In this document: positions 6,120 to 14,299 of the stretch, piece after piece
How the letters are laid out: each line of letters opens with the position of its first letter
Numbering within the stretch: the first letter of the stretch is position 1
DNA from: Kibdelosporangium persicum
Lineage (GTDB): Bacteria > Actinomycetota > Actinomycetes > Mycobacteriales > Pseudonocardiaceae
DNA: 64,000 nucleotides
Direction: 5' to 3'
NCBI RefSeq assembly: GCF_013280595.1
Contig: NZ_JAAATY010000007.1
Span: 248,001-312,000 of the forward strand
The notes under the pieces: model-generated
Told to the model about the DNA's origin: nothing
Databases searched by the model: none
Seen by the model: only the letters and a program-made list of their open reading frames with translations
Translations under genes and position numbers: made by a program

Positions 6120-6557
6120 ATGACGAAAACCGGCAACACCACTGGCTCGCCCCGCGTTGGGGCATATGCCCTCATTGGACGAGAGGATCGTCTCCTGGTC
6201 ATCGCACAGCCGGATCGCTCTGTTCTGCCCGGTGGCGAGGTACACGCCGATGAGCCTGTCGAGCAGGCGCTTCGCAGAATCCTGCGCTGCCAACTCGGCG
6301 GTACCATCGCTGACCTGGACTTCTGCGCCGTGATCGAACACGATGCGGCCGAGCCTGGTGGGCCACGCGCGTTCGCACTGGCTTTCCTATTCGACGTCAC
6401 GCTCACCGAACCCCACTTCGTCGGCAAGTCAGCATCACATCCAGTTCGGTGGGCTCATACACGCAACCTCGCCACGCTCGCCCCACCGACCGTCAGAAAC
6501 GATGTGATCTCAGGGCTACTGTCATCTGATCGCCCATGGCGTGGATGGAGCCCCTGA
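6120..6557 (+). CDS. Nudix-fold protein lacking catalytic glutamates
   Basis: This 145-residue protein has the beta-strand start and position of a Nudix domain (VGAYALIGREDRLLVI, then VLPGGEVHADEPVEQAL). The Nudix box normally reads G-x5-E-x7-R-E-U-x-E-E-x-G-U. Here the REUxEE core is RRILRCQ, so the metal-binding glutamates are missing. It is therefore more likely a binding or regulatory protein than a pyrophosphohydrolase. It sits downstream of the XRE and TSUP genes on the same strand and could sense a nucleotide-sugar or similar ligand for them; that is inference. Confidence 0.7.
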   Translation: MTKTGNTTGSPRVGAYALIGREDRLLVIAQPDRSVLPGGEVHADEPVEQALRRILRCQLGGTIADLDFCAVIEHDAAEPGGPRAFALAFLFDVTLTEPHFVGKSASHPVRWAHTRNLATLAPPTVRNDVISGLLSSDRPWRGWSP

Positions 6558-6703: not shown

Positions 6704-7048
6704 TCAGGAGGGCCTCCAGCACTGCGACGGTGGGCCGTGCGGCGGCAGCCGCATGCCTGCCGGTACTGGCCGAGGGGAACCGTCGGCGGCAATTAGATGC
6801 TGGTGGGCGATGGTCCACACGGTGCACGGGTGTCGTCGCGGGCGTCGCCATCCCGAGCGTTCCGGGCAGCGGCCGTGCTCGTCGGGGGCGTGCAGTTCCA
6901 GCAGTGCCCGCCACGCATCTGTCAGTCGGGCGATCTCCGTTTCCGCCAGGGCGGCGCGGGACGGCTCATCACCTTTGGTGACCGATCGGTCGAGGTAGTC
7001 CAGACGTTCGGTCACCGCCGTGTTGAGGGTCGAGGTCAGGTACTTCAT
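6704..7048 (-). CDS. Small hypothetical protein, end of rSAM operon
   Basis: A 114-residue protein starting MKYLTSTLNTAVTERLDYLD. The ATG overlaps the stop of the upstream gene (ATGA), which fixes the start. The first 75 residues are predicted helical, with one WRALLELHAP stretch; the tail is basic and proline-rich with VWTIAHQHLIA. No family is recognised. It is the last gene of the minus-strand operon led by the radical SAM gene and is convergent with the Nudix-like gene. Confidence 0.55.
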   Translation of the reverse strand: MKYLTSTLNTAVTERLDYLDRSVTKGDEPSRAALAETEIARLTDAWRALLELHAPDEHGRCPERSGWRRPRRHPCTVWTIAHQHLIAADGSPRPVPAGMRLPPHGPPSQCWRPS

Positions 7049-7386
7049 CCATCGGGGGACTCCTCGTCGAACCAGGTATCCGATCGCGGGCCGGCTTGGG
7101 GTCGTGGTGCGGGCGGGGCGGGAGATCGGGACTTCGGCTTCCCCCACAGCCGGGCGTGGAGGTCGTTCGGTATCCAGTCGCGAAGCTGCAGCCCGGCGGT
7201 CATCACCTGACGGGCAGCGGCGTTGAACCGGGAGCACGGCCAGGACTCGGTGCAGCACAGGGGGCAGGCCCACGGCTCATTTTGGGGCGAGAGGTGCGCG
7301 GTCAGTTCATCGATCGCCTCGACGACGCGTGCGGTAGCGCTGTCGGCTGCGACGATGACGGCGACGACTTCGCCGATCCGGCCCAT
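7045..7386 (-). CDS. Small cysteine-rich hypothetical protein
   Basis: A 113-residue protein with a CPLCCTESWPC cluster near residues 41-51, likely a metal or zinc site. FNAAARQVMTAGLQLRDWIP follows, then a proline-rich tail. Proteins with a WPC-x-RF-x-AA pattern occur as unnamed genes in streptomycetes. The stop overlaps the next start and the preceding gene ends five bases upstream, so it is part of one operon with the aldo/keto reductase and radical SAM genes. Confidence 0.6.
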   Translation of the reverse strand: MGRIGEVVAVIVAADSATARVVEAIDELTAHLSPQNEPWACPLCCTESWPCSRFNAAARQVMTAGLQLRDWIPNDLHARLWGKPKSRSPAPPAPRPQAGPRSDTWFDEESPDG

Positions 7387-7390
7387 CGGC

Positions 7391-7576
7391 TCACGCCGCC
7401 GTGTCGGGATGGGTCGGGGTCTCGTAATGCCGCGGCCGTCGTTGCCCGGTCTGCAGGTCGGTGATCAGGTGGCTGGCTGTGGCCGAATCGTGCGACAGCG
7501 CGAGTACGCGGGAGCCGTTGGGGGCGAACAACGGGTAGTTCCCGGCTGGGATCTCGGTGTTGTGCAGGCCGCTCAT
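7391..7576 (-). CDS. 61-residue peptide in the rSAM operon
   Basis: The ATG at 7576 has a strong AGGAAGG ribosome site; an upstream TTG is less likely. The product begins MSGLHNTEIPAGNYPLF and contains serine/threonine/histidine-rich sequence without cysteines, a signal peptide or a membrane helix. It lies between the aldo/keto reductase gene (27 bases upstream) and the 113-residue gene (4 bases downstream). It could be a small accessory subunit or, more speculatively, a peptide substrate of the radical SAM enzyme. Confidence 0.6.
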   Translation of the reverse strand: MSGLHNTEIPAGNYPLFAPNGSRVLALSHDSATASHLITDLQTGQRRPRHYETPTHPDTAA

Positions 7577-7603
7577 GATCAACCTTCCTGGTTCGGGGCG
7601 GCG

Positions 7604-8494
7604 TTAGACAAGGCTGGCGGCCGGGTTGTCGTTGATGGCCAGTCCGATCGCCGTCACGTCGTCGCGGGTCAGGTCGATCTGAACTGCCATCAGGTTCTCG
7701 TGGAGGTGAGTGCTGCAACTGGTGCCAGGGATGGGCATCATTACCGGGGAGCGGTGCAACAGCCATGCCAGTGCGAGCTGGGCGGGCATTGCGTTGTACT
7801 TCGTGGCCAGTTCGTCAAGCACGCCACCGAGTTCAGCGAGCTTGCCGGTCGCGAGCGGCGCGTATGGCACGAAGGCGATCTCGGCGATCTCGCAGTGACG
7901 AAGAACCTCTTCGAACACGCGGTTGGAGACGTTGTACTTGTTCTGCACGGCAGCGATGTCGACCAGCTCGGCGGCCTTGCGAACGTGACTTATGTCCACC
8001 TTGGACAGGCCGATGTGGTGGATCTTCCCTTCGGCCTGCATGTCGGAGAGCACAGCGAGTTGGTCTTCCATCGGCACGGCAGGGTCGATGCGGTGGAGGT
8101 AGTACAGGTCGATCCGGTCGACCTGGAGCCGCCGCAGGCTTATCTCGACGCACTGGCGCAGGTACTCCGGTCGGCCGCAGGGTGCCCACTTGGCGGGGCT
8201 TTGGCGAGTGAGTCCGCCTTTGGTCGCGATGACCAGGCCGTGCGGGTAGGGGTGCAATGCCTTGCGGATGTACTTCTCCGCGGTGAACGGGCCGTAGGCG
8301 TCGGCGGTGTCGATGTGCGTCACACCCGCGTTGGCCGCGTCGCGGAGTATCTGCATGGCCTGTTCCGGATTGTTCGGAGCGCCCCAGTGACCGGGGCCGA
8401 TGATCTGCATGGAGCCGAACCGAAGGCGACGCGTAGGCGGCTCACCGATCGGGAGAACGTTCGGCGTCGAGTGCTGCTTGTCCGCGGTCACCAT
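7604..8494 (-). CDS. Aldo/keto reductase
   Basis: A 296-residue NAD(P)H-dependent oxidoreductase of the AKR superfamily, likely reducing a carbonyl compound in the cytoplasm. The catalytic tetrad is visible: Asp62 and Tyr67 (HIDTADAYG), Lys92 (ATKGG) and His134 (YYLHRID). The cofactor-binding end PIPGTSCSTHLHEN is also present. The start chosen is the ATG preceded by AAGGA; an upstream in-frame TTG at 8518 would add eight residues. It lies in the radical SAM operon 120 bases downstream of the P-loop gene, so its substrate may belong to that pathway. Confidence 0.85.
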   Translation of the reverse strand: MVTADKQHSTPNVLPIGEPPTRRLRFGSMQIIGPGHWGAPNNPEQAMQILRDAANAGVTHIDTADAYGPFTAEKYIRKALHPYPHGLVIATKGGLTRQSPAKWAPCGRPEYLRQCVEISLRRLQVDRIDLYYLHRIDPAVPMEDQLAVLSDMQAEGKIHHIGLSKVDISHVRKAAELVDIAAVQNKYNVSNRVFEEVLRHCEIAEIAFVPYAPLATGKLAELGGVLDELATKYNAMPAQLALAWLLHRSPVMMPIPGTSCSTHLHENLMAVQIDLTRDDVTAIGLAINDNPAASLV

Positions 8495-8613
8495 GAATTC
8501 CTTGTTGTGGTTGGACAAAGTAGACGACAGGCGGCATCGTCGCGAGCTGCGCCTTGGTGGACGGCGGGATCAAGGGTCGGGGCGCTTGACCCCGCCGCCG
8601 GCTTTGGGGGTGG

Positions 8614-9228
8614 CTACACCGCTGCATCGCCGGATAGCGACGTGGCGACGAACTCGATCGCCCTGGACAGAGCCTGGTCGTGTCCGTTTGCGGGCAGCAA
8701 CTCGTGGGTCAGGTCGAGTTCATCGAGAACGCGGCCGACGAAGCGATCCGCGAGCACACGGAATTCACTGTCCTCGTCGCGGTCCTTGTTGTTACCCAAC
8801 GGAATTGATGCGTCCAGAGTGGTGCGGAGCAACAGGTCGTAGTGGACGCTGTGACCGCGGACCAGGGATTCCAAGTAGGCCAGGGTGGTGGGCTCGGGCT
8901 GCTCACCGCGGTACTCCAGCGCGGCACGGTAGTAGCCGAGGGCGTCAGGCACTGGCCGGTCCACGAGTACGACATCGCCGTGACGCCACGCTTCCAGTTC
9001 GTAGCTGATCCCGCGCGTGGCGAACCACAGTGTCGAGGCCCAGGTGTGGTTGTGCAGGATCGGTAGCCCGGCGCGTTGGGCCTGCTCGCCGAGATCAGCC
9101 ACGGTTGTGACCTGGATGTGCCGGCGGCGCAGGTCGTGGGCGAGGCGGGCGAGGAAGGTGGACTTTCCGGTGGAGTGGGTGCCGAGCACCCCGATCACCA
9201 CGGGCTTTTCGACGTCACCGATCACCAC
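8614..9228 (-). CDS. P-loop AAA/kinase-like ATP-binding protein
   Basis: A 204-residue protein with Walker A GVLGTHSTGKST at about residues 13-24 and an acidic VVLVDRPVPDALGYY motif near residue 88. This layout is typical of the AAA_28/NadR-type nucleoside kinase group. Such proteins phosphorylate small molecules or act as NTPases; the substrate is unknown. The GTG start follows AAGGAGGG and overlaps the end of the exonuclease gene by seven bases, so translation is coupled. Confidence 0.75.
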   Translation of the reverse strand: MVIGDVEKPVVIGVLGTHSTGKSTFLARLAHDLRRRHIQVTTVADLGEQAQRAGLPILHNHTWASTLWFATRGISYELEAWRHGDVVLVDRPVPDALGYYRAALEYRGEQPEPTTLAYLESLVRGHSVHYDLLLRTTLDASIPLGNNKDRDEDSEFRVLADRFVGRVLDELDLTHELLPANGHDQALSRAIEFVATSLSGDAAV

Positions 9229-9842
9229 AACCCTCCTTCGGGTTCACTGGGTGGAGCGAAACCTGGGAGCGCGGCAAGCTTGATCAGCTTGTCCCAGTCG
9301 AGGCTGCCGAGTTCGATCAAAGCGAGTAGCAGCTTCCAGGCGCACCAGGTGTCGTAGCCGGCGCGGTGGTAGCGCTGCTCGGTGATGCCGCTGGTATCCA
9401 ACTCGACCACCCGGACCACGTTGTCGAGCCCGTAGCCGCCGCTGAGGTTGGGCAGGACGTACTTGGCCAGGCGCAGGGTGTCGAGCACCATCGGCGGTTT
9501 CCAGGCCGGGAGGTGGGCGGTGAGGACGTTCAGCTCCACCGAGGCGTTGTGCGCGATCAGCGTGCGCTCGGTCAGCAGCGGTTCCACCTCGGACGCGACC
9601 GCGGACCATGGTGGACAGCTGGCCACGTCGTCGTTGCTGATGCCGTGGACCTTGCGGGTCACCATCGCGGTGATCGGCCGTTCGGGGCGGATCATCCACG
9701 ACCGCAGGTGGTCACCCGACACCTCGCCGTCCACCGGCAGCACCGCGATCTCGATGATCTCGGGCGGCTGCTGGCCGTTGCCTTCCACGTCGACCACAGC
9801 AAGCTGCCGGCCCGTCAGGACCGCGGGCAGGGAAGCGGTCAC
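9222..9842 (-). CDS. DnaQ-fold 3'-5' exonuclease-like protein
   Basis: A 206-residue DEDDh-type exonuclease fold. Motif I is VVDVEGNG (Asp18 and Glu20), motif II is HNASVELNVL and motif III is HRAGYDTWCAW. Motif II normally carries Asp where this protein has Glu, a conservative change that may keep or weaken activity. The GTG start overlaps the stop of the radical SAM gene (GTGA) and has AAGGAG upstream. Coupling to a radical SAM enzyme and a kinase-like protein suggests a nucleotide-related substrate, which is inference. Confidence 0.8.
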   Translation of the reverse strand: MTASLPAVLTGRQLAVVDVEGNGQQPPEIIEIAVLPVDGEVSGDHLRSWMIRPERPITAMVTRKVHGISNDDVASCPPWSAVASEVEPLLTERTLIAHNASVELNVLTAHLPAWKPPMVLDTLRLAKYVLPNLSGGYGLDNVVRVVELDTSGITEQRYHRAGYDTWCAWKLLLALIELGSLDWDKLIKLAALPGFAPPSEPEGGLW

Positions 9843-11050
9843 GGCGTCGTCTCCTTCATGGTCGCGGGCCAACCGAGGTCGGCTCGCCCGTGGCGGCGCG
9901 GGTGGTGCGGCTTGCTCACGTCGTGCACCTGGTAGCCCAGGCTGTGCTGCATGACATACCGGCATTGCTCGTCCAGTCCGGCAACCACCACGGCGCGGTC
10001 GTTGATGCCGACCAGCTTGCCGCCCAACCTCTCGGCCATCGCGGCGACCTTCTGTGCCTGCGGGCGAGTCCACGCTTTCGCGCAGCGCTGTAGCTGGCTG
10101 GCCGGGCAGATGTCGCACAGCTCGCGGATGCCGTAGTGGCCGTTGAAGTCCGCGACGCCGTGCGCGTAGGTGACGGCACAGGAGGTCTTGCGAAACAACG
10201 GTGAGCCACCATCCGGGCGGGACCGCGCGGCGGCCAGGATGCGCTGTTCCAGCGCCTCGGGGAAAACCTTGCGGCGTGCTCCTTCCTGGTAGGGCTCGGG
10301 GAGGCCGTGGTCGCGGTAGTAGGCGCGGATCTGGTCCTTGTAGAACAGGCCGGTGAACACGGTGGCGTGCGCGTACCGGCTCAGGTCGAGCGCTCGGCTC
10401 AGGTGCTCGTCACTGTCGTTGAGGCCCGGCACGATCGGCCGCCAATACAGGACCGTCCGATAGCGCTCGGCGTGCTCAAACGCCGTGCGCAACGAGGTCG
10501 CCGCAATGGTGGAGTCCACCGGCTCGACCTGATCGTGCTCGATCCCTGAGTGCGTGATCAGCAGGGTGAGCTTGATGTTGCGGAACGAGTTCAGCACCGC
10601 ACAGTCAGCCGGCTCGACCCGCCAGCGGGAGATGACCAGGACGTGGTTGGTCAGCTTGTGGGCGTCCAGTAGTCGTAGCGTCGCGAAGGTGTGCGGCTTG
10701 ACGGCCGGCAGCATCGGGTCGGTGGCCCGGTTGAGCAGCTGAATCGGGGTGACGTGGGGCTGAAAGAACCGGTGCCCGACCAGCAGGTCAACGGCCTGCT
10801 CGTCGCTCATCAGCGCGCGGGGCACCTTCATGGCGAAGTTGTCGAACAGGTGCCGCACGCAGTACCCGCAGTCCAGCGGACACCCGATCACGTGGTTGAG
10901 GCTCAGTCCGCTCTTGCGGTTCTCGATCACCTCCAGCAGCTCCGGCCGCAGGCCCGCCCGCTGCTGCTCGGTCAGGATCGGCAGCGGCTTCCGCGAGGTC
11001 ACCGCGGGCCTGTCCTGAGCGGGTGCGGGGCTGGTGGGCGAGATCGTCAC
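9839..11050 (-). CDS. Radical SAM enzyme, first gene of operon
   Basis: A 403-residue protein with the [4Fe-4S]/S-adenosylmethionine motif CPLDCGYC (Cys57, Cys61, Cys64), a variant CX3CX2C. A C-terminal cysteine set (CDICPASQLQRC) may hold a second cluster or metal. The spacing and SRKPLPIL/NHVIGCPLDCGYC context are reminiscent of the spore photoproduct lyase-like branch, but the substrate is unknown. GTG at 11050 has GGAGGC upstream and is preferred over ATG 11077. It is divergent from the XRE regulator and heads a seven-gene operon with overlapping or near-overlapping genes. Confidence 0.85.
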   Translation of the reverse strand: MTISPTSPAPAQDRPAVTSRKPLPILTEQQRAGLRPELLEVIENRKSGLSLNHVIGCPLDCGYCVRHLFDNFAMKVPRALMSDEQAVDLLVGHRFFQPHVTPIQLLNRATDPMLPAVKPHTFATLRLLDAHKLTNHVLVISRWRVEPADCAVLNSFRNIKLTLLITHSGIEHDQVEPVDSTIAATSLRTAFEHAERYRTVLYWRPIVPGLNDSDEHLSRALDLSRYAHATVFTGLFYKDQIRAYYRDHGLPEPYQEGARRKVFPEALEQRILAAARSRPDGGSPLFRKTSCAVTYAHGVADFNGHYGIRELCDICPASQLQRCAKAWTRPQAQKVAAMAERLGGKLVGINDRAVVVAGLDEQCRYVMQHSLGYQVHDVSKPHHPRRHGRADLGWPATMKETTP

Positions 11051-11090
11051 AAGAGCCTCCTGCTCGTTGGGGCGCATTTCGAGGAGCCGA

Positions 11091-11121
11091 TTGCCATGTG
11101 AGCAGGACCACCTATGCTCAC
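11091..11121. promoter_or_regulatory. Candidate promoter/operator between rSAM and XRE genes
   Basis: The 150-base gap between the divergent genes contains a perfect 7-base inverted repeat, GTGAGCA at 11098-11104 and TGCTCAC at 11115-11121. It overlaps a possible rightward promoter, TTGCCA at 11091 and TATGCT at 11113 with a 16-base spacer. It is a reasonable binding site for the XRE protein encoded next to it. Confidence 0.4.
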
Positions 11122-11199
11122 GGAACGGGGCAACTCCACGACACCGTGTGGTCGGCCCCTGTTGCCCCTCCGCGACACATGCAGCGCCGGGAGCCCGCG

Positions 11200-12720
11200 A
11201 TGACCCACGACGACGCAGCCGAGGGCACCACCCTCGGTGAGGACGTCGAACCTACGGCGGGGCGGCTTGCTGAAGAGATCCGGCGACGCCGCAAGGCCGC
11301 CGACCTCAGTCATGCCCAGTTAGCGATGACGATCGGCTACTCGCGCGAGTACGTACGGCGGGCCGAGAGTCCGCGCAAGGGCTTGCCCTCGGTTGACCTG
11401 GTCCGCGCACTCGACCACGCCCTGGGTGACGACGGCACACTACTGGCCCTGCGCGAACAAGCCGACGTCGCGCGGCAAGCACGTCGCCGCTCGCGCGCCG
11501 GCTCGCTCGTGGCGGGAATGTCGATGTCGGCGATCCCCACCACGGTGTCTGGTGTCCCCGCACTCGCTCTGGACACCAGCGGCGGAGCAGACACCGAGGT
11601 CGCCGTCCAGGCACCACCCGGCCGGTTCTTCACGGGAACCTCGATCGCGGCCAGGGCCTACCCGGCCAGCGACGACGGCCGCATCCTGACCACCGTCCCG
11701 ACCGGGTTCGCTGACGACATGTTCCTGCGGCGCCCCCGGCGTGGGCTGGTCATCGGCGTCACCAAGAACGAGCACGGTGTCGGCCTGTTCGGGCTGGACA
11801 GCCGGCAGGCGCGCCGACGATTGGCAGGTGCACCCGAGGGAGCACGGCTGCTGATGTCGCGTGCCTACGCCCTCGACGACCTCACCCTCGGCATCCTGTG
11901 GGCGGTGGCCAACCTGGATGAGGCGCTGCTCGACGACGACGCGACGCTGTCGGCCAGTCGGGGGCAACTGGCCGTCTACGAGCAGTCGCCCCGCTCGGCC
12001 GCTGGCTGTGAGATCGCTGCCGATCTGGCTCCCGCCTCGCGGATGTGGCTGGGTTCCCAGTTCTGTGCCAGCCACATCCTGCGCCACACCGACACCCTCA
12101 CCGGTATGCCCGCGTTCTGGACCCGCGAGCAGCGCGGCGAGGAGGCCAGCACCTGGCTGCTGTTCGCGCACAAGTACGACTACCTGCGCCAATCGGCCAG
12201 TACAGCCTCCGGGGCGGATGCAGGCCCCACCCGCGCCTTCTGCGTACCGGCCTCGGCAGTGGCCAACTCCAGCCGACCCGAACGGATCCTGCTGCTGCTT
12301 GCGGTGGCGCTGATGGAGTCGTTCGGTATCACGGTCGACGTGTGTGCTGAGCCCGAATATGTTGCGGTGCCCGGCTTCGTTTTCGACGGCCATCGGCGCG
12401 CGATCGTGGCGAACTGGGTCGGCGCCGACGGCATCTGGCAGGTCGACGTCACCGACACCCCGCCGTTGCTGCGCGAGTTCGCCGACGCCACCGGCTACGC
12501 ACGCTCCCACTCCATCGCCGCTGCCGCCACGCCGAGCGAACGGCTGCACGCGTTGGCGGACTACCTCGACCTGGACTGGGCGTGGCTCGTCCACCGCTGC
12601 CGGGAACTCGGCGACTACGGCAGCGCTGGGATCGCCCAGCCCCGCAGCCGCTTGCTGTCCACCGAGGGCGTCGACCAAGCCTGCCGCTTCCTCGCGCAGG
12701 CTGATCAGGTCGGCCGCTAG
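11200..12720 (+). CDS. Large XRE-family regulator with unknown sensor domain
   Basis: A 506-residue protein. Residues about 22-75 form a helix-turn-helix (RLAEEIRRRRKAADLSHAQL then TIGYSREYVRRAE). The remaining 400 residues are a conserved-looking enzyme-like or sensor domain (GRFFTGTSIAARAYP, FCASHILRHTDTLTG, FCVPASAVANSSRPERILLL, GIWQVDVTDTPP). I do not recognise this domain by name, though the architecture occurs in actinomycetes beside radical SAM genes. The ATG at 11200 has GGGAG upstream; in-frame starts before it would add an unstructured leader. It is divergent from the radical SAM operon and 42 bases before the asparaginase gene, so it likely controls both. Confidence 0.75.
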   Translation: MTHDDAAEGTTLGEDVEPTAGRLAEEIRRRRKAADLSHAQLAMTIGYSREYVRRAESPRKGLPSVDLVRALDHALGDDGTLLALREQADVARQARRRSRAGSLVAGMSMSAIPTTVSGVPALALDTSGGADTEVAVQAPPGRFFTGTSIAARAYPASDDGRILTTVPTGFADDMFLRRPRRGLVIGVTKNEHGVGLFGLDSRQARRRLAGAPEGARLLMSRAYALDDLTLGILWAVANLDEALLDDDATLSASRGQLAVYEQSPRSAAGCEIAADLAPASRMWLGSQFCASHILRHTDTLTGMPAFWTREQRGEEASTWLLFAHKYDYLRQSASTASGADAGPTRAFCVPASAVANSSRPERILLLLAVALMESFGITVDVCAEPEYVAVPGFVFDGHRRAIVANWVGADGIWQVDVTDTPPLLREFADATGYARSHSIAAAATPSERLHALADYLDLDWAWLVHRCRELGDYGSAGIAQPRSRLLSTEGVDQACRFLAQADQVGR

Positions 12721-12762
12721 GCTGCCGAGGCATCCCGGCACCCAACACTGGAAGGGATACCT

Positions 12763-13836
12763 GTGCCCGAACCCTCCACCACGCTGGCACGCCGAGTGGT
12801 CGTTTTCGGCCTGGGCGGCACCATCGCCATGACCACCAGCGACGCGGGCGGCGTTGTACCCGCGCTGTCCGCCGACCAGCTGGTCGCCGCGGTGCCAGGG
12901 CTGGCCGAGTCCGGCATCGCCGTCGATGTGGAGGACTTCCGCCGCGTCCCCGGCGCATCGTTGACCTTCGACGACCTGGCCGCGCTGGCCAGCGCGATCG
13001 ACCAGAAACTCGCCGCCGGGGCGGACGGCATAGTGATCACCCAGGGCACCGACACCATCGAAGAGACCGCCTACCTGCTCGATCTCACCCACACCCGCTC
13101 GCAGCCCATCGTCGTGACCGGGGCCATGCGCAACCCCACCCTCGCCGGAGCCGACGGCCCGGCCAACCTGCTCGCCGCGGTGCAGACCGCCGCCAGCCCC
13201 GACGCACGCGACCTCGGCACCCTGGTGGTGTTCGCCGACGAGATCCACGCCGCAGCTCGCGTCCGCAAAACGCACTCCACCAGCGGATACACATTCGTCT
13301 CCGCCAACGGCGGACCACTCGGCTACGTCGTGGAAGGACAGCCCCGAGTACTCAACCGCCCGAGTAGCCGCACCACCGTCCCCACGACCGGCGAGTTCCG
13401 CCCGGTTGAGGTCGGCCTGGTCACGATGGTGCTCGGCGACTCCGGCACCCTCCTGGAAGCCGCCGCTGATCGCCTGGACGGGCTGATCGTCGCCGGCTTC
13501 GGCGTCGGACACGTCCCCAAACGCGTCGTCGACACCCTCACCAAGCTGGCCGCCCAAATGCCCGTGGTACTGGCCTCCCGTACCGGGGCCGGCTCTGTGC
13601 TCGCCCGCACCTACGCGTTCCCCGGCTCCGAGTCCGACCTGCTGGGCCGGGGCTTGATCTCGGCCGGGTTCCTCGATCCGCTCAAGGCCCGCATCCTGCT
13701 ACACCACCTCCTGGCCACGGGACACGACCTGGCCGGTATCCATGCCGTGTTCGCCCAAGCCGGCGGCGGACATGACGCCACAAACCCGCGCTCTAGCCAC
13801 CCAGCCAGCACCCTGCAGGGAGCCGCCCGTGCGTAG
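12763..13836 (+). CDS. L-asparaginase
   Basis: A 357-residue type I/II asparaginase family amidohydrolase, hydrolysing asparagine (or a related amide) to aspartate and ammonia. The two threonine motifs are present: GLGGTIAMT near residue 17 and ITQGTDTIEET near residue 91, together with the GADGPANLLAAV stretch. There is no signal peptide, so it is cytoplasmic. The GTG start follows GGAAGG. It is 42 bases downstream of the XRE gene and overlaps the PCC-domain gene by eight bases. Whether it acts on free asparagine or on a product of the neighbouring radical SAM pathway is open. Confidence 0.9.
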   Translation: MPEPSTTLARRVVVFGLGGTIAMTTSDAGGVVPALSADQLVAAVPGLAESGIAVDVEDFRRVPGASLTFDDLAALASAIDQKLAAGADGIVITQGTDTIEETAYLLDLTHTRSQPIVVTGAMRNPTLAGADGPANLLAAVQTAASPDARDLGTLVVFADEIHAAARVRKTHSTSGYTFVSANGGPLGYVVEGQPRVLNRPSSRTTVPTTGEFRPVEVGLVTMVLGDSGTLLEAAADRLDGLIVAGFGVGHVPKRVVDTLTKLAAQMPVVLASRTGAGSVLARTYAFPGSESDLLGRGLISAGFLDPLKARILLHHLLATGHDLAGIHAVFAQAGGGHDATNPRSSHPASTLQGAARA

Positions 13837-14299
13837 CCACGAACTGACCCTCGGCCGCAGCTTCGCCGTCGCCTTCGACCACGGCGACGACTTCTTCACC
13901 GCCCTGACCGAGTTCTGTCAACAGCACGGCGTGCGCCAGGGCTACATCCCCGGCTTCATCGCCGGCTTCAGTGAGGTCCAGATCGTCGGTACCTGCGACA
14001 AGCTCGACGACCCCAACGCTCCAGTGTGGACCAAGGTCCACCTGACCAACGTCGAAGCCTTCGGCGGCGGCACCCTCGCCTACGACCCGGTCAACGACCA
14101 GGTCGCCCCACACATCCACGTCGCGGTCGGCCTCAAGGAACACAGCGCCACCGGCCACACCAGCCACCTGCTCGGCGCCACCGTCCAGTTCCTCACCGAG
14201 ATGCTCGTCATCGAAGTCGCCAGCCCACAGATGCACCGCGTCCGCCAACCAGACCTCTACGACGTCCCCCTCCTGCGCTTCCAACCGAACGACGAGTAG
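13829..14299 (+). CDS. PCC/DUF296-domain protein
   Basis: A 156-residue stand-alone PCC (DUF296) domain. The metal-binding histidine pattern HIHVAVGLKEHSATGHTSHL is visible near residues 93-112, and the core GYIPGFIAGFSEVQI is typical of the trimeric fold. Bacterial members are small cytoplasmic proteins of unclear function. The GTG start overlaps the asparaginase stop by eight bases, with GGGAG upstream, so the two proteins are coupled and may act together. Starting further upstream would only translate asparaginase sequence in another frame. Confidence 0.85.
   Translation: MRSHELTLGRSFAVAFDHGDDFFTALTEFCQQHGVRQGYIPGFIAGFSEVQIVGTCDKLDDPNAPVWTKVHLTNVEAFGGGTLAYDPVNDQVAPHIHVAVGLKEHSATGHTSHLLGATVQFLTEMLVIEVASPQMHRVRQPDLYDVPLLRFQPNDE

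What the first reader, a model, noticed from the sequence alone, without database searches (positions are those of the whole stretch)
6704..12720. Undescribed-looking radical SAM / exonuclease / kinase operon with a dedicated regulator
Seven minus-strand genes are packed with overlaps (GTGA, ATGA): radical SAM enzyme, DnaQ-fold exonuclease, P-loop kinase-like protein, aldo/keto reductase, a 61-residue peptide and two small proteins, one with a CPLCC cluster. They diverge from a 506-residue XRE protein with an unrecognised sensor domain and a palindrome between them. The mix suggests a modified-nucleotide or peptide pathway, or a defence system. I know no named system with this set.
Basis: partly seen in the sequence, partly recalled or inferred. 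Interest (0 to 1): 0.75.

Follow-up and report, generated by a model that had tools for sequence, protein, structure and literature searches.

The report
Radical-SAM nucleotide-analogue operon with exonuclease
These genes belong to a little-studied but widely shared gene set that probably makes an altered nucleotide, with its own nuclease as a safety device; some relatives sit among known anti-virus genes, so it may be a chemical defence against phages.

Summary
The exonuclease was found beside the rSAM in 80 of 80 related genome loci. 98 of 104 loci also carry a nucleotide enzyme nearby: a thymidylate-kinase-type enzyme, the window's kinase, and/or a CMP hydroxymethylase with nucleoside-diphosphate kinase (NDPK). 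The window's kinase folds like thymidylate kinase. The relatives' 'thymidylate synthase' is closest to MilA, a CMP 5-hydroxymethylase. Eleven loci hold hydroxymethylase-NDPK-rSAM-exonuclease-kinase-AKR in order (AKR broken in one). The rSAM has seven near-invariant cysteines, so a second Fe-S cluster is likely.

Best reading: a pathway makes a modified, probably cytidine-type, triphosphate, and the exonuclease removes it from host nucleic acid. Alphaproteobacterial plasmid copies lie near named anti-phage genes in 4 of 7 loci, against 0 of 7 same-plasmid controls (1 of 7 if an AbiEi antitoxin counts), which hints at phage defence. Actinobacterial plasmid copies do not (0 of 7), so a nucleoside-antibiotic role stays open. 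The small genes and the XRE protein are not conserved parts.

The parts
9839..11077 (-). Radical SAM enzyme of an unnamed family (412 aa): CxxxCxxC cluster C66/C70/C73 plus four C-terminal cysteines C300/C321/C324/C332
   Evidence: no Pfam/NCBIfam hit; model pLDDT 88.9; fold matches are mainly rSAM enzymes (PFL-activating enzyme, spore photoproduct lyase, HydE, viperin); the seven cysteines kept in 103-105 of 105 aligned rows
9222..9842 (-). DEDDh 3'-5' exonuclease (206 aa)
   Evidence: the five DEDDh positions kept in 77-81 of 81 rows; in the window the third acid is Glu instead of Asp; found beside the rSAM in 80 of 80 genome loci
8614..9228 (-). P-loop nucleotide kinase with thymidylate-kinase-like fold (204 aa)
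   Evidence: AAA_28; best fold match thymidylate kinase 4gmd, E 1.5e-7; PHROG thymidylate kinase 4.7e-8; no convincing solved relative by sequence (best E 0.13)
7604..8518 (-). Aldo/keto reductase, frequent accessory (an ATG eight codons in may be the real start)
   Evidence: an AKR on the same strand within 4.5 kb in 37 of 104 loci
7391..7582 (-). Small ORF (61-63 residues), membership doubtful
   Evidence: matched in 1 of 80 genome loci (L018)
7045..7386 (-). 113-aa protein with CPLCC cluster, membership doubtful
   Evidence: matched in 1 of 80 genome loci (L018)
6704..7075 (-). Last small ORF, doubtful gene
   Evidence: not called by codon usage; matched in L018 and weakly in L037 (2 of 80)
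11200..12720 (+). XRE-type regulator, C-terminal part unrecognised, divergent from the operon; probable local regulator (inference)
   Evidence: HTH_31 2.6e-10; 5 of 80 loci, 2 of them over most of its length
11127..11168 (.). Inverted repeat GGGGCAAC-N26-GTTGCCCC, candidate operator
   Evidence: same repeat in L018, related GGGGCAAAT/ATTTGCC repeats in L021 and L019; not in L022 (5 regions looked at)
11098..11121 (.). Inverted repeat GTGAGCA-N10-TGCTCAC, second operator candidate
   Evidence: also in L018, not in L019, L021 or L022

Best explanation
The operon is one form of a patchily spread, often plasmid-borne nucleotide-modifying system. The rSAM enzyme, probably with a second Fe-S cluster, alters a pyrimidine nucleotide; relatives that supply a CMP hydroxymethylase point to cytidine nucleotides. 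The thymidylate-kinase-type partner, with NDPK in some clades, carries the product to the triphosphate inside the cell. The triphosphate then acts on invading phage, for example as a faulty or chain-ending building block. The DEDDh exonuclease trims it from the host's own nucleic acid, which would explain why the rSAM gene is so rarely seen without it. The aldo/keto reductase, when present, reduces an intermediate. The XRE protein controls expression. Shown: gene set, conservation, predicted folds, family of the hydroxymethylase, neighbourhood. Inferred: substrate, product, triphosphate as active form, exonuclease as antidote, defence role.
For: Exonuclease beside rSAM in 80 of 80 genome loci; immediate same-strand neighbours in 80 of 81 gene maps, window included (L093 rSAM not called); junction gap median -4 nt, n=80. 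98 of 104 loci have a TMPK, AAA_28 kinase, CMP hydroxymethylase+NDPK or NDPK on the same strand within 4.5 kb; TMPK and AAA_28 kinase never together (0 of 104), as expected of interchangeable kinases. The window's kinase folds like thymidylate kinase and matches PHROG thymidylate kinase. The one 'TS' partner compared with solved structures (L041) matches MilA at 2e-79 and the best ordinary TS at 8e-8; MilA's Lys133 is kept and its Ala176 is Gly/Ala in 26 of 26 full rows. NDPK active-site His 25 of 25. Named anti-phage genes (dGTPase, Shedu, CBASS-type) near 4 of 7 alphaproteobacterial plasmid loci, 0 of 7 controls (Fisher one-sided 0.035). Patchy: 3 of 7 other same-genus genomes, 7 of 60 relatives with own. 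Precedent: a viral exonuclease excises viperin's product ddhCMP from RNA (PMC9415739, abstract).
Against: No activity or phage test exists. Defence statistics are fragile: if the AbiEi-type antitoxin in control L127 is counted the contrast is 4 of 7 against 1 of 7 (p=0.13); classing was mine, from annotation names. Actinobacterial plasmid loci show no named anti-phage gene (0 of 7: L111-L116, L121), and four of them (L114, L115, L116, L121) carry a 'natural product biosynthesis' DUF6415 protein. Chromosomal flanks were not scored. The window's operon has no hydroxymethylase or NDPK; no hydroxymethylase was found in its genome (no positive control), NDPK-like matches lie elsewhere, so its substrate is inferred from relatives. 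MilA's Tyr218 is not kept in the partner. L109 (Nostoc) lacks the exonuclease. Six of 104 loci show no nucleotide enzyme, three of them (L075, L091, L094) near contig ends.
Confidence: 0.42

Rival explanations
1. Nucleoside natural product: the same enzymes make an exported nucleoside antibiotic, and the exonuclease gives self-resistance, much as in the 4'-thiothymidine (thmA-C) pathway, where an NTPase does so.
For: thmA-C (rSAM, kinase, NTPase) suffice for a nucleoside antibiotic with self-resistance (PMC12691670: outline, passages and section 7 read). The hydroxymethylase partner is closest to MilA of mildiomycin. AbmG of albomycin is rank 50 among fold matches of the kinase. RiPP-like genes lie beside L018, L059 and L067. 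No named anti-phage gene in the 7 actinobacterial plasmid loci.
Against: None of the families shared by nine or more loci (c0-c13) looked like a transporter, though c4, c9 and c13 have no Pfam match and c11 was judged by eye. NMP kinase plus NDPK suggests a triphosphate kept in the cell. Alphaproteobacterial copies sit near defence genes.
Confidence: 0.32
2. Nucleic-acid modification: the pathway supplies a modified nucleotide for incorporation into the host's DNA or RNA as a self-mark.
For: A hydroxymethylase that makes hmdCMP for incorporation is the logic of T-even phage DNA (PMC5175136, passages). A glycosyltransferase-like gene precedes the set in about 15 loci (c10; Pfam only 1.1e-3, below cut-off).
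Against: The hydroxymethylase has MilA-like CMP-preferring residues. No restriction nuclease recurs in the set. Most loci (65 of 104) lack the hydroxymethylase.
Confidence: 0.1
3. Repair or house-cleaning: an SPL-like rSAM acts on damaged nucleic acid, with an exonuclease and salvage kinases.
For: Spore photoproduct lyase is the third fold match (4fhc, 2.2e-5).
Against: PFL-activating enzyme ranks above it, viperin follows at 3.9e-4, and TM-scores are only about 0.4; a de novo hydroxymethylase and NDPK do not fit repair; patchy, plasmid-borne distribution.
Confidence: 0.07
4. Chance neighbourhood of unrelated genes.
For: The three small ORFs and the XRE-asparaginase-PCC block are not conserved with the core.
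Against: 80 of 80 co-occurrence, gap median -4 nt; rSAM and exonuclease distances correlate (r=0.945, n=100, 0 of 1000 permutations; shared ancestry not removed).
Confidence: 0.01

Closest known systems
Viperin / SAND (ddhCTP synthase) with CMPK2-type kinase
   Same: rSAM with a nucleotide kinase of the thymidylate-kinase kind nearby (CMPK2 pairing recalled); nucleotide product and antiviral role proposed here
   Different: No PADLOC match for the rSAM; extra four-Cys C-terminus; almost constant exonuclease; optional CMP hydroxymethylase, NDPK, AKR
thmA-C (4'-thiothymidine, Photorhabdus; PMC12691670)
   Same: rSAM + kinase + one hydrolase as a minimal movable set
   Different: Hydrolase is an NTPase, not a DEDDh exonuclease; reported in gammaproteobacteria; ThmA sequence not compared here
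Mildiomycin pathway (MilA; PMC5175136)
   Same: CMP 5-hydroxymethylase homologue in 39 of 104 loci
   Different: Rest of the mildiomycin pathway not compared; kinases and exonuclease added; the window lacks MilA
Albomycin AbmM/AbmG
   Same: rSAM plus kinase building a cytidine analogue (as told in PMC12691670); AbmG structure among kinase fold matches (2.3e-5)
   Different: AbmM sequence not available for comparison
DEDDh and PDC-S48 entries of PADLOC
   Same: Exonuclease domain
   Different: Only the general DEDDh domain is shared

Membership tests
Radical SAM superfamily | CxxxCxxC cluster motif and partial TIM-barrel fold | tested here: met
   Cys at 66/70/73 in 103-104 of 105 rows; fold matches mainly rSAM enzymes. 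No Pfam hit at E<=1
Viperin/SAND | Sequence match to a viperin-type model | tested here: not met
   PADLOC: no hit for P0007 or the L119 rSAM at E<=0.01 (that PADLOC holds a viperin model is recalled); viperin first appears as the 15th fold match
Viperin/SAND | Makes ddhNTP | not testable with these tools
   No chemistry done
CMP 5-hydroxymethylase (MilA), for relatives only | Closest homology to MilA and CMP-selecting Lys133/Ala176 | tested here: met
   One member (L041) against solved structures: 2.2e-79; Lys kept 26 of 26, Ala176 position Gly/Ala 26 of 26, Tyr218 position mostly Asn. Window lacks this gene
Thymidylate-kinase-fold nucleotide kinase (P0005) | P-loop and fold | tested here: met
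   GTHSTGKS P-loop; fold E 1.5e-7, TM about 0.6-0.7; substrate untested
DEDDh exonuclease | Four acidic residues and the His | tested here: met
   77-81 of 81 rows; window has Glu for the third acid
Named anti-phage system in PADLOC 2.0 | System-specific protein hit | tested here: not met
   generic DEDDh/PDC-S48, capH/HTH and LeoA/mad8 P-loop hits, weak dGTPase for the HD protein; none specific
Thm/Abm thionucleoside clusters | Homology of the rSAM | not tested
   Their sequences were not obtained

The most novel reading that the evidence does not exclude
A viperin-like but separately evolved immune pathway: an rSAM enzyme with two Fe-S clusters makes a toxic (hydroxymethyl)cytidine-type triphosphate against phages, and a genetically linked DEDDh exonuclease is the built-in antidote that proofreads it out of host nucleic acid. 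The module is found on plasmids of Actinomycetota, Alphaproteobacteria and (without the exonuclease) Cyanobacteriota.
Probability: 0.33. Interest if true: 0.88.

Novelty: new variant of a known kind. Interest (0 to 1): 0.7.

Why it matters
If right, it adds an unstudied enzyme family that makes nucleotide analogues, shows how bacteria can pair an analogue maker with its own proofreading antidote, and supplies about a hundred operons in which to look for new antiviral or antibacterial nucleosides. It also makes a testable link between nucleoside-antibiotic chemistry (MilA) and phage defence.

Tried and rejected
Peptide (RiPP) pathway: small ORFs not conserved with the core; RiPP-like genes near only a few relatives. 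Strict exclusivity of the three nucleotide-enzyme types: held in the 81 loci but broken by eleven plasmid/viral-collection loci; only TMPK versus AAA_28 kinase stays exclusive. Phage cargo: no match in the phage collection; the nine IMG/VR loci were not checked for true viral origin. Solved relatives of the rSAM by sequence: none at E<=1. Cyanobacterial survey: 1 of 292 at E<=1e-20, the query's own genome. Chance level of the first palindrome: one search used the wrong spacing and missed the site, so it tells nothing.

Paper searches (open PMC texts only) gave no listing that I recognised as this gene set; that is not proof of absence. Papers: PMC12691670 (outline, passages, section 7), PMC5175136 (passages), PMC10853773 (passages; DndFGH, not this set), PMC7074753 (passages; albucidin, two rSAM genes, no exonuclease mentioned), PMC9415739 (outline with abstract); others only as listings.

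Counts differ between (gene clusters, 81 loci; tblastn E<=1e-8, same strand, 4.5 kb, 104 loci): TMPK 36 against 39. The 80 loci are the best 80 of 93 confirmed; 15 of 39 matching plasmid records were opened, near-duplicates and weak matches left out. Some loci are near copies (L025/L026; L078/L105 identical in rSAM). L059 was left out of alignment A2 because the stretch held a stop. On rechecking I lowered the best explanation from 0.45 to 0.42 and the novel case from 0.35 to 0.33, and raised the antibiotic rival from 0.30 to 0.32, because of the AbiEi gene in a control stretch.
Full report
1. Observation. Pfam and NCBIfam identify the exonuclease, P-loop protein, AKR and XRE helix-turn-helix; the rSAM and the small ORFs have no family. 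rSAM and exonuclease overlap by 4 nt, exonuclease and kinase by 7 nt; the AKR follows after 95 nt. The three small ORFs downstream were found together in one of 80 relatives (L018) and not around the same-genus copy L143, so the conserved unit is rSAM-exonuclease-kinase, often with AKR.

2. Relatives. A scan of genome contigs with the rSAM alignment gave 93 confirmed places, of which the best 80 were kept: nearly all Actinomycetota, plus a Nitrospirales MAG, an Acidobacteriota MAG and a Leptolyngbya. Nine more came from viral contigs. 39 plasmid records matched, of which 15 were opened; no phage record matched. In a spread of 296 genomes of the class 14 matched at E<=1e-3, own genome, partial and weak matches included; 7 of 60 relatives matched at E<=1e-20, including the own genome and 3 of 7 other members of its genus. 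The module is therefore accessory.

3. Gene set. The exonuclease was found beside the rSAM in 80 of 80 genome loci. In gene maps of these loci and the window the two are immediate same-strand neighbours in 80 of 81; in L093 the rSAM was not called. The gap has a median of -4 nt (n=80, range -101 to 72, with called starts). In the enlarged set of 104 loci the exonuclease was found in 102 at E<=1e-8; L093 has it at a weaker score, and L109 (Nostoc plasmid) seems to lack it. Nucleotide enzymes nearby: TMPK 39, hydroxymethylase+NDPK 28, AAA_28 kinase 19, AAA_28 kinase+hydroxymethylase+NDPK 11, NDPK alone 1, none 6, of 104. TMPK and AAA_28 kinase never occur together. The types follow the rSAM tree (11 changes against a shuffled mean of 56; near copies add to this). 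The window lies with L018-L022 and the Nocardia plasmid copy L111, sister to the eleven loci with the order hydroxymethylase-NDPK-rSAM-exonuclease-kinase-AKR; in one of these, L116, the AKR is in broken pieces.

4. What the proteins are. The rSAM model (pLDDT 88.9) matches PFL-activating enzyme, spore photoproduct lyase, HydE, OxsB and viperin at TM about 0.3-0.45 by its own length: an rSAM fold without a close solved relative. Three SAM-cluster cysteines and four C-terminal cysteines are kept in 103-105 of 105 rows, so a second Fe-S cluster is likely (inference). The window's kinase model (pLDDT 88.7) matches thymidylate kinase best (E 1.5e-7, TM 0.66), then NadR; AbmG of albomycin is rank 50; PHROGs agrees. 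The TMPK of the other clade (L055) matches true thymidylate kinases (7.4e-18). The 'thymidylate synthase' of relatives, compared through its L041 member, matches the CMP 5-hydroxymethylase MilA (2.2e-79) far better than any TS (8.2e-8 at best). In the MilA paper (PMC5175136, passages) Lys133 and Ala176 set the preference for CMP; the Lys is kept and the Ala position is Gly or Ala in 26 of 26 full rows, while MilA's Tyr218 position is mostly Asn. NDPK keeps its active-site His (recalled) in 25 of 25; the exonuclease keeps the DEDDh positions in 77-81 of 81, with Glu for the third acid in the window.

5. Setting. Of seven distinct alphaproteobacterial plasmid loci, four have a named anti-phage gene within 7-8 kb: dGTPase (L107), Shedu and ABC-three-component genes (L117, L120), and patatin, DncV-like nucleotidyltransferase and ThiF genes that I read as CBASS (L119). 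A fifth has an N-6 DNA methylase (L108); L110 and L118 have toxin-antitoxin, helicase-type or FRG genes. Stretches half a plasmid away on the same seven plasmids have no such named gene, but L127 has an AbiEi-type antitoxin, L124 RelE and Fic genes, and L122 a helicase. Fisher one-sided: 4 against 0, p=0.035; 5 against 0, 0.010; 4 against 1 (AbiEi counted), 0.13; 5 against 1, 0.051. Classing was mine, from annotation names, after seeing the loci. Four of the seven also carry an HD-domain protein as the fourth gene (L108, L117, L119, L120), only weakly like dGTPase (L120 not scanned). In the seven actinobacterial plasmid loci no named anti-phage gene was seen; two have a MazE7-Doc toxin-antitoxin pair.

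6. Mechanism. The parts fit a pathway that makes a modified nucleotide and raises it to the triphosphate. A DEDDh exonuclease so closely tied to the rSAM is best explained as an antidote that trims the product from host nucleic acid; a viral exonuclease (DEDD class, recalled) excises the viperin product ddhCMP from RNA (PMC9415739, abstract). Defence and antibiotic production both fit; neighbourhood evidence leans to defence in Alphaproteobacteria and gives no support for it in Actinomycetota plasmids. The thm genes show that an rSAM, a kinase and a hydrolase can be a complete analogue-making unit with self-resistance (PMC12691670).

7. Regulation. The GGGGCAAC/GTTGCCCC repeat between the divergent genes recurs in L018 and, changed, in L021 and L019, not in L022: a candidate operator for the XRE protein. 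P0008-like XRE proteins matched in 5 of 80 loci, over most of their length in 2; TMPK-type loci mostly have an XRE/DUF5753-DUF6879 cassette instead.

8. Novelty. No PADLOC, NCBIfam, Pfam or solved-structure sequence match names the rSAM, and ten paper searches in open PMC texts showed nothing that I recognised as this system. It works like known analogue makers, so I file it as a new variant of a known kind rather than a new category.

Noticed in passing
11200-14299: XRE, asparaginase and PCC-domain genes form a block also found beside the rSAM operon in L018 and L021; asparaginase and PCC not found around L143.
   Followed up: partly
L018:14496-20752, L059:14620-21194, L067:15591-20725: Genes that look by eye like an FxLD-type lanthipeptide cluster (name recalled, not HMM-checked; short precursor with EFDLD in L018 and L059) lie downstream of the rSAM operon; a LanC-family gene is annotated near L116.
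   Followed up: partly
L119:10304-11740, L117:10308-11744, L108:9298-10728, L120:10290-11720: A 476-478 aa HD-domain protein is the fourth gene in four alphaproteobacterial copies; only weakly like dGTPase.
   Followed up: partly
L112:5916-6977; also L099-L102, L113, L114: NDPK is doubled (two NDK stretches in one 353-aa protein in L112).
   Followed up: no
L109:6977-8785: Nostoc plasmid copy has rSAM and kinase but no exonuclease; its branch is long in the tree.
   Followed up: no
plasmid records NZ_CP109396.1, NC_023286.1 and others: A second rSAM family, about 25-30% identical, exists on Streptomyces plasmids.
   Followed up: no
6120-6557: ORF that looks NUDIX-like by eye (not HMM-checked) just beyond the small ORFs; relatives in L043 and L055.
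   Followed up: no
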